Source: Chlorobium sp. (lineage in GTDB: Bacteria > Bacteroidota > Chlorobiia > Chlorobiales > Chlorobiaceae). From it: a stretch of DNA of 64,000 bases. Where the stretch lies: positions 62,001-126,000 of the forward strand of contig SZXW01000003.1 in the NCBI GenBank assembly GCA_005862285.1, given 5' to 3'. Below, one piece after another: positions 62,624-64,000 of the stretch (the first letter of the stretch is position 1; each line of letters starts with the position of its first letter). The notes below the pieces were generated by a model. It was not told the DNA's origin, searched no databases, and worked only from the letters and a program-made list of their open reading frames with translations. The position numbers and the translations under genes were made by a program.

Positions 62624-63118
62624 ATTACTTTTGCGCATTTACCAGTGGGTTATATCACCTGCAGATTGATGTTCGATCATTTCGAACAACGTATAAAATC
62701 CTACCGGTCATATCTGTTCTGGGGTTTGTCTGGTGCTGTCGCCCCGGATACTGATGTGCTTTATAACATTCTGCTCGATCCGAAGCAGACAAATCATCAT
62801 AACTATTTCACCCACTATTTTTCATTCTGGGGGCCATTACTTCTGTTTTCATTATTTCTGCTTTTGATCTCGAAAAAAAGCAACCAATATCCGGTTTTTT
62901 TTCTGCTGTTCAGTTTCGGCGGTTTTTTTCATCTGATGCTTGATATGGTGTCAGGATATATTTTTATACCGGCACCCTTCTTGTACTTACCTTTCGGGGC
63001 CTACCTTGAAAAAAATCATCATGATCGGGAATATTGTATTGAAGCATCGATAGTCATCTGGGCACTTTATCTGCTGATCAGGGATAAAAAAATCAGGGAC
63101 TATAATCCTGAGAGATAA
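62624..63118 (+). CDS. YdjM-like membrane protein with probable ATT start
   Basis: 164 residues with membrane helices around LLLFSLFLLLISK and FFLLFSFGGFFHLMLDMV. It carries the acidic/His pattern GAVAPDTDVLYNIL, HHNYFTHYF, HLMLD of the YdjM/LexA-binding hydrolase-like family. The frame has no ATG. The first standard start is GTG 62645, but a strong GAAGGAGGA at 62612-62620 points to ATT at 62624 (ATT 62621 is also possible), which restores MTFAHLPVGY with the family-typical N-terminal AHL. The upstream in-frame stop is TAG 62588. Metal-dependent hydrolase activity is unproven. Confidence 0.78.
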   Translation: MTFAHLPVGYITCRLMFDHFEQRIKSYRSYLFWGLSGAVAPDTDVLYNILLDPKQTNHHNYFTHYFSFWGPLLLFSLFLLLISKKSNQYPVFFLLFSFGGFFHLMLDMVSGYIFIPAPFLYLPFGAYLEKNHHDREYCIEASIVIWALYLLIRDKKIRDYNPER

Positions 63119-63135: not shown

Positions 63136-63381
63136 TCAGTATTTTGGAGGGCAGAGAAAAATATCTTCCATATTATCCCACATCCATGTTCCGCCTGAAA
63201 TATTTCCCCAGGAACCGATTTCAGCCGATGCTTTCTGTATTTCCTCGATGGTGCAGGAAAAACCTTCTTCCTGGATAGCATGCATTCGTTGGGCGAGATC
63301 TTCAATGGCAAGAATGCGGAGGCGGAAACTGTCGTCTGTTTTCATTTTGTCGATCAGTGCTATAGCCTGTTTTATTGACAT
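63136..63381 (-). CDS. Nif11-type leader peptide precursor 1 (putative RiPP)
   Basis: 81 residues. Residues 1-64 look like a Nif11-family leader (MSIKQAIALIDKMKTDDSFR, then AIEDLAQRMHAIQEEGFSCTIEEI) ending in the double glycine ISGG (63-64), the usual cut site of peptidase-containing exporters. The remaining 17 residues, TWMWDNMEDIFLCPPKY, would be the core: two Trp, one Cys, several acidic residues. The start at 63381 has GGAGG close by. No modification enzyme or exporter is adjacent, so the product is unknown. It is a close relative of the next gene (36 of 64 leader residues identical). Confidence 0.75.
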   Translation of the reverse strand: MSIKQAIALIDKMKTDDSFRLRILAIEDLAQRMHAIQEEGFSCTIEEIQKASAEIGSWGNISGGTWMWDNMEDIFLCPPKY

Positions 63382-63428
63382 GGAAACCTCCGTTTCAAAA
63401 TTTTGACAGAATAAATCGTCAGTTGTAT

Positions 63429-63665
63429 CTATGTTTCCCAGATAGTAGAAGGGAAAATATCCTCCAGCCAGGAACCGCCCGAAATATCATCCCTGGGGCC
63501 GATTTCGGAATTTGCCTGTTGTATTTCTTCTATGCTGCAGGTATACCCTGCATCGATGATAGCTCGAAGTCGTGCATTGACATCTTCTATCGCCAGAATG
63601 CTGAGACGAAAATTCTCATCGTATTGAAGCTTTTCAATAAGTGCTTTTGCCTGTTCGACTGACAT
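63429..63665 (-). CDS. Nif11-type leader peptide precursor 2 (putative RiPP)
   Basis: 78 residues with a Nif11-like leader (MSVEQAKALIEKLQYDENFR, AIEDVNARLRAIIDAGYTCSIEEI) and ISGG at 61-64. The core would be SWLEDIFPSTIWET (14 residues), sharing SW/TW after the GG and EDIF with the first copy. It lacks Cys, so lanthionine or disulfide ring types are unlikely. It is 47 bp upstream of the first precursor on the same strand and probably cotranscribed. No clear ribosome binding site is seen. Confidence 0.75.
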   Translation of the reverse strand: MSVEQAKALIEKLQYDENFRLSILAIEDVNARLRAIIDAGYTCSIEEIQQANSEIGPRDDISGGSWLEDIFPSTIWET

Positions 63666-63773: not shown

Positions 63774-63802
63774 ATTATAATCTTTCTCTGAACGGTTGGA
63801 AA
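63774..63802 (-). promoter_or_regulatory. Possible promoter of the Nif11 peptide pair
   Basis: On the minus strand, TTTCCA, a 17-nt spacer and TATAAT lie about 110 nt upstream of the 63665 start. The -35 box is a 4/6 match. By-eye consensus only. Confidence 0.3.
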
Positions 63803-63845: not shown

Positions 63846-64000
63846 TTAGTTAATAGCGGCGCCAGAAGTATTATTACCGAGATATTTTATCAAGACCTGC
63901 TCAAGGTCTGCTTTTTTGAAAGGTTTGGAAATATAGTCGTCCATACCGGCACTGATGCATTTTTCACGATCACCTTTCATTGCATGCGCTGTCATGGCTA
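63846..64000 (-). CDS. C-terminal end of a response-regulator receiver-domain protein (partial)
   Basis: The last 51 codons of a gene running off the right edge. [19 protein letters not shown] and [16 protein letters not shown] form the end of a CheY-like receiver domain: the Thr of MTAHA and the Lys of SKPF are conserved. The Ala-Met-Lys-Gly-Asp pattern is typical of receiver domains at the end of hybrid sensor kinases, but whether a kinase is attached lies outside the window. Stop TAA at 63846-63848. Confidence 0.85.

What the first reader, a model, noticed from the sequence alone, without database searches (positions are those of the whole stretch)
63136..63665. Two tandem Nif11-leader peptides with short Trp-rich acidic cores
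Two small proteins share a Nif11-like leader (36 of 64 positions identical) ending in ISGG. Each then carries a different short tail: TWMWDNMEDIFLCPPKY and SWLEDIFPSTIWET. Conservation drops sharply after GG except for the aromatic residue at core position 2 and EDIF, as expected for precursor and variable core. Only one Cys occurs in the two cores, which argues against lanthipeptides, while Ser/Thr/Lys plus Asp/Glu would allow ester or amide crosslinks. No maturase or exporter is in the last 1 kb, so the pair may act with enzymes encoded elsewhere, or beyond the receiver-domain gene. This is the best candidate here for an undescribed system.
Basis: partly seen in the sequence, partly recalled or inferred. 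Interest (0 to 1): 0.85.

Follow-up and report, generated by a model that had tools for sequence, protein, structure and literature searches.

The report
Orphan pair of exported Nif11 peptides
Two neighbouring genes in a green sulfur bacterium encode small precursors that most likely are cut and exported by a peptide transporter encoded elsewhere in the genome; they are a new but ordinary-looking branch of a known peptide family, with the small twist that one relative keeps its peptide after losing that locus's modifying enzyme.

Summary
P1 (63136-63381, -) and P2 (63429-63665, -) are real Nif11-leader precursors (TIGR03798 E 4.6e-14 and 8e-14) with the cores quoted; P2 is clearly under purifying selection. 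They belong to Chlorobiaceae. The pair sits in a variable slot between a FIST/hybrid-kinase operon and a convergent aldehyde dehydrogenase. Five genomes carry such peptides there; in other genomes with this operon the slot is empty or holds other genes, so the kinase link is probably positional. No maturase or exporter lies nearby. The same genome has an NHLM export locus (radical SAM, HlyD, C39 peptidase-ABC, second ABC) whose own Nif11 precursor shares the P1/P2 leader lineage (SH-aLRT 94). All five carriers have the C39 exporter (22 of 86 family genomes do), but the five are close relatives. In relative G007 a deletion removed that locus's precursor and nearly all of its radical SAM gene, yet exporter and P2 ortholog remain. 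Best reading: double-glycine peptides cleaved and exported in trans by the NHLM exporter, that radical SAM enzyme not being essential. New member of a known kind.

The parts
63136..63381 (-). P1, 81-aa Nif11-leader precursor
   Evidence: ORF; HMM hits; ortholog DNA alignment
63190..63381 (-). P1 Nif11 leader, 64 aa, ends ISGG
63139..63189 (-). P1 predicted core TWMWDNMEDIFLCPPKY; EDIFLCPPKY conserved in G064 and G065
   Evidence: cleavage after GG is inferred
63387..63391 (-). GGAGG ribosome-binding site of P1
   Evidence: sequence; kept in G064 and G065
63429..63665 (-). P2, 78-aa Nif11-leader precursor
   Evidence: ORF; HMM hits; selection
63474..63665 (-). P2 Nif11 leader, 64 aa, ends ISGG
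63432..63473 (-). P2 predicted core SWLEDIFPSTIWET
   Evidence: cleavage after GG is inferred
63774..63802 (-). promoter-like site TTTCCA-17-TATAAT upstream of P2; both hexamers also present in G064 (spacer 16)
   Evidence: consensus match only, promoter count near the shuffle expectation
63846..63998 (-). C-terminal end of the 874-aa hybrid histidine kinase of the FIST/kinase operon (neighbour, probably not a partner)

Best explanation
P2 and P1 form a small two-gene unit encoding short secreted peptides. Each is made with a Nif11 leader; the NHLM exporter encoded at C1:250-258 kb of the same genome recognises the leader, its C39 peptidase cuts after the double glycine, and the 14-17 residue acidic, aromatic core leaves the cell. 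The genes inserted between convergent housekeeping genes, away from the export locus, and duplicated there. The radical SAM enzyme of the export locus may act on some members but is not needed for the upkeep of the P2 type. The released peptide most likely acts outside the cell as a signal or against competitors. Shown: precursor identity, selection on P2, shared leader lineage with the exporter's own precursors, exporter in all carriers, loss of the radical SAM gene in G007. Inferred: export in trans, cleavage site, extracellular role.
For: TIGR03798/PF07862 above cut-offs. Own genome holds one C39 exporter at E <= 1e-10, with HlyD, ABC1 and ABC2 above the TIGR03794/03796/03797 cut-offs. All five carriers (G000, G064, G007, G065, G058) have C39, against 22 of 86 family genomes. 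The ten peptides of this locus form one clade (SH-aLRT 83), joined in a 15-member clade (SH-aLRT 94) by the four export-locus precursors of the same genomes plus one further G065 peptide. P1/P2 and the export-locus precursors share unusual pre-cleavage residues (aliphatic at -4, no Leu at -7 or -12; sequences). G007: exporter open with catalytic Cys/His/Asp kept, the locus's own precursor gone and the radical SAM gene reduced to about 50 frameshifted codons, no other homolog of that enzyme, only two Nif11 hits in the genome, one being the P2 ortholog and the other a protein without GG.
Against: The five carriers are close relatives, so co-occurrence may be one event. P2 lacks the hydrophobic -7 and -12 residues that LahT uses (PMC6363468). 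The G007 loss may be recent, so selection seen on its P2 may predate it. G007 is a MAG (99% complete). No expression or mass data.
Confidence: 0.6

Rival explanations
1. The pair are full RiPP precursors modified in trans by the export-locus radical SAM/SPASM enzyme, for instance at the conserved Trp/Phe or the single Cys, then exported.
For: Shared leader lineage with that enzyme's own precursor; the enzyme is intact in G000, G064, G058 and G065; Trp at core position 2 and IF are invariant in the seven-sequence alignment.
Against: G007 lost this enzyme and kept the peptide and exporter. P2 of the window has no Cys, and the P2 core does not resemble those of the export-locus precursors (7-36% identity).
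Confidence: 0.2
2. The peptides are intracellular regulators working with the adjacent FIST (NosP-like) sensor and hybrid kinase.
For: Same strand, 180 bp downstream of the kinase, in synteny in four genomes, with a fifth cut off by its contig end; FIST and kinase resemble NosP/NahK (below curated cut-offs).
Against: Most genomes with the FIST/kinase operon lack the peptides; the slot is empty or holds unrelated genes. Promoter-like site in front of P2. GG cleavage motif kept in P1 and P2.
Confidence: 0.1
3. The genes are decaying leftovers of a former peptide cluster with no present function.
For: No local machinery; the G065 P1 copy has a long branch and SAG instead of GG; P1 leader pN/pS G000/G064 is 0.55 on few changes.
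Against: pN/pS of 0.07-0.22 for the P2 leader, conserved core, open frames in all five genomes.
Confidence: 0.1

Closest known systems
Nif11-derived peptides (TIGR03798) with NHLM exporters, Haft et al. 2010 (PMC2887384)
   Same: Leader family, GG motif, exporter family, Chlorobium hosts
   Different: Genes lie away from exporter and maturase; cores are short, acidic, with at most one Cys, and conserved among orthologs
Prochlorosins (ProcA/ProcM; PMC10783134)
   Same: Nif11 leaders with a GG motif for cleavage and transport, several precursors per genome
   Different: No LANC-domain synthetase in carrier genomes; cores lack multiple Cys
Nif11 peptides with TIGR04064-like radical SAM (own locus C14)
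   Same: Same genome, Nif11 leaders, GG motif
   Different: C14 leaders are only 22-38% identical to the P1/P2 and export-locus group and have Cys-rich cores

Membership tests
Nif11-leader precursor (TIGR03798/N11P) | Nif11 leader above curated cut-off | tested here: met
Nif11-leader precursor (TIGR03798/N11P) | Gly-Gly type motif followed by a short C-terminal tail | tested here: met
   ISGG in P1 and P2
Nif11-leader precursor (TIGR03798/N11P) | C39/NHLM exporter in the genome | tested here: met
   at C1 and not local
Nif11-leader precursor (TIGR03798/N11P) | Core hypervariable relative to leader (a usual trait, not part of the formal definition) | tested here: not met
   ortholog cores nearly as conserved as leaders
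RiPP (modified peptide) | Modification by a cognate enzyme | tested here: inconclusive
   No cis enzyme; trans radical SAM possible but lost in G007
Class II lanthipeptide (prochlorosin type) | LanM/LANC synthetase in genome | tested here: not met
   a control genome rang
Graspetide | ATP-grasp ligase in genome | tested here: inconclusive
   no MvdD pre-ATP-grasp domain, but controls silent
TOMM/LAP | YcaO in genome | tested here: not met
   controls rang

The most novel reading that the evidence does not exclude
These are Nif11-leader peptides that are exported essentially unmodified: a Gram-negative counterpart of double-glycine pheromones or class II bacteriocins, with an acidic aromatic core ([ST]W...IF...) conserved across species.
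Probability: 0.3. Interest if true: 0.5.

Novelty: new member of a known kind. Interest (0 to 1): 0.35.

Why it matters
If P1/P2 are exported without modification, the Nif11/NHLM machinery is not only for modified products, and orphan Nif11 genes become testable candidates for secreted signals in green sulfur bacteria. G007 is a natural deletion that separates the exporter from the maturase. Otherwise this is a modest extension of a known precursor family.

Tried and rejected
Kinase partnership: rejected as the main reading because other genomes fill or empty the slot freely. Lanthipeptide, TOMM and NHLP routes: no LANC, no YcaO, no TIGR03793 hit (the NHLP control was silent). Graspetide: nothing found, control silent. 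Solved-structure search with the family profile: no hit. Defence library: no hit. Co-occurrence of peptide and C39 exporter was not used as a statistic because the five carriers are close relatives. A conserved promoter across all five orthologs was sought; only G000 and G064 align clearly. Searching for GG-type small ORFs beside the C2 radical SAM pair gave no convincing precursor. Structure prediction was not run: it would not decide between the readings.

Full report
Setting. The window is C9:62001-126000 of a 2.61-Mb, 15-contig genome. Close orthologs come from records named Chlorobiaceae bacterium. P1 and P2 are the minus-strand ORFs 63136-63381 and 63429-63665, 47 bp apart.

The observation. 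Both proteins pass Pfam Nif11 and NCBIfam TIGR03798 cut-offs. Their leaders are 56% identical. P2 changes against orthologs fall mostly at third codon positions, with leader pN/pS of 0.07-0.22 and about 0.3-0.45 for the first eight core codons; the P1 leader pair G000/G064 gives 0.55 on few changes. So these are real genes, and P2 is clearly under purifying selection.

Orthologs. Peptides at the same place occur in G064, G007, G058 and G065 (named records). P2-type cores: SWLEDIFPSTIWET, SWLENIFPPTIWET, SWLLDIFPCPPW, SWLLEIFPCPWYT, SWLLEIFPCPWYS. P1-type cores: TWMWDNMEDIFLCPPKY, AWMENMEDIFLCPPKY and, in G065, SFSEDIFLCPPKYSF after a diverged but in-frame leader. G058 and G065 carry a further peptide with core SLCWTNFCFN. 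Core conservation is close to leader conservation among orthologs, so the 'variable core' prediction holds between paralogs only.

Neighbourhood. Upstream lie a hybrid histidine kinase and a FIST protein resembling NahK and NosP, both below their curated cut-offs. The FIST protein is found in 22 of 86 family genomes. In thirteen further FIST/kinase loci read, the stretch after the kinase has no Nif11 gene: it is closed (L130, L131, L133), holds a 705-aa gene (L126, L127, L128, L132, L134), holds other genes (L129, L135, L137, L138), or runs to a contig end (L136). Where the aldehyde dehydrogenase is present it faces the kinase. The peptides therefore look like a clade-specific insertion between convergent genes, and a promoter-like site precedes P2.

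Machinery. No maturase or exporter lies within C9:118000-137999. At C1:250-258 kb the genome has a Nif11 precursor, a radical SAM/SPASM protein, NHLM HlyD, the C39 peptidase-ABC and the second ABC. In a tree of 103 Nif11 leaders the ten peptides of this locus form one clade (SH-aLRT 83) and join the export-locus precursors of G000, G064, G058 and G065 and one more G065 peptide in a 15-member clade (SH-aLRT 94); the Cys-rich C14 precursors of the same genome fall outside. The alignment is short and the tree a quick search, so this is moderate support. [quoted passage not shown] P1, P2 and the export-locus precursors of G000, G064 and G058 keep an aliphatic residue at -4 and have no Leu at -7 or -12, which fits a shared exporter with its own preference but is not proof.

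The informative relative. In G007 the NHLM locus keeps HlyD, C39-ABC and ABC2 with catalytic residues intact. The segment that holds the Nif11 gene and radical SAM gene in G058 and G065 (about 2.3 kb) is reduced to about 0.18 kb, leaving some 50 frameshifted codons of the radical SAM 5' end. No homolog of that enzyme is found elsewhere in G007; of its two SPASM hits, side by side, one lies in a CXXX-repeat radical SAM maturase above its cut-off and the other in its partner gene. Its only Nif11 hits are the P2 ortholog and a protein without GG beside a BchG-like gene. So exporter and P2-type peptide persist together without that maturase. Limits: G007 is a metagenome-assembled genome, and the loss could be recent.

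Conclusion. P1 and P2 are best read as double-glycine peptides exported in trans by the NHLM system. Whether the cores are modified is open; lanthionine and azole chemistry are unlikely. The exporter and leader families are known, including in Chlorobium (PMC2887384), so this is a new member of a known kind.

Noticed in passing
L124 (G000:C1:788000-794500): A SynChlorMet cassette: ScmF radical SAM (TIGR04251, 557.6 bits) and ScmD (TIGR04248, 114.7 bits) above cut-offs, with a small Cys/Gly-rich peptide between them.
   Followed up: partly
L009/L010 (G000:C14, 24-36 kb): Two Nif11 precursors with Cys-rich cores near a TIGR04064-like radical SAM gene.
   Followed up: partly
L125:5223-8914 (G000:C2): Two radical SAM genes flanking a gene that resembles ornithine acyltransferases, with no evident Nif11 precursor beside them.
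   Followed up: no
L012:6895-7395 and L113:6883-7182: A Nif11-domain protein beside BchG-like and B12-type radical SAM-like genes in two genomes; the G007 copy has no GG and ends in LWGNRIIG. It may have a non-secretory role.
   Followed up: no
L123 (G007:C5:77000-83000): A CXXX-repeat peptide maturation system (TIGR04115, TIGR04119 above cut-offs).
   Followed up: no
window 62645-63118 (+): A predicted membrane protein of the YdjM family (PF04307) between the aldehyde dehydrogenase and P1.
   Followed up: no
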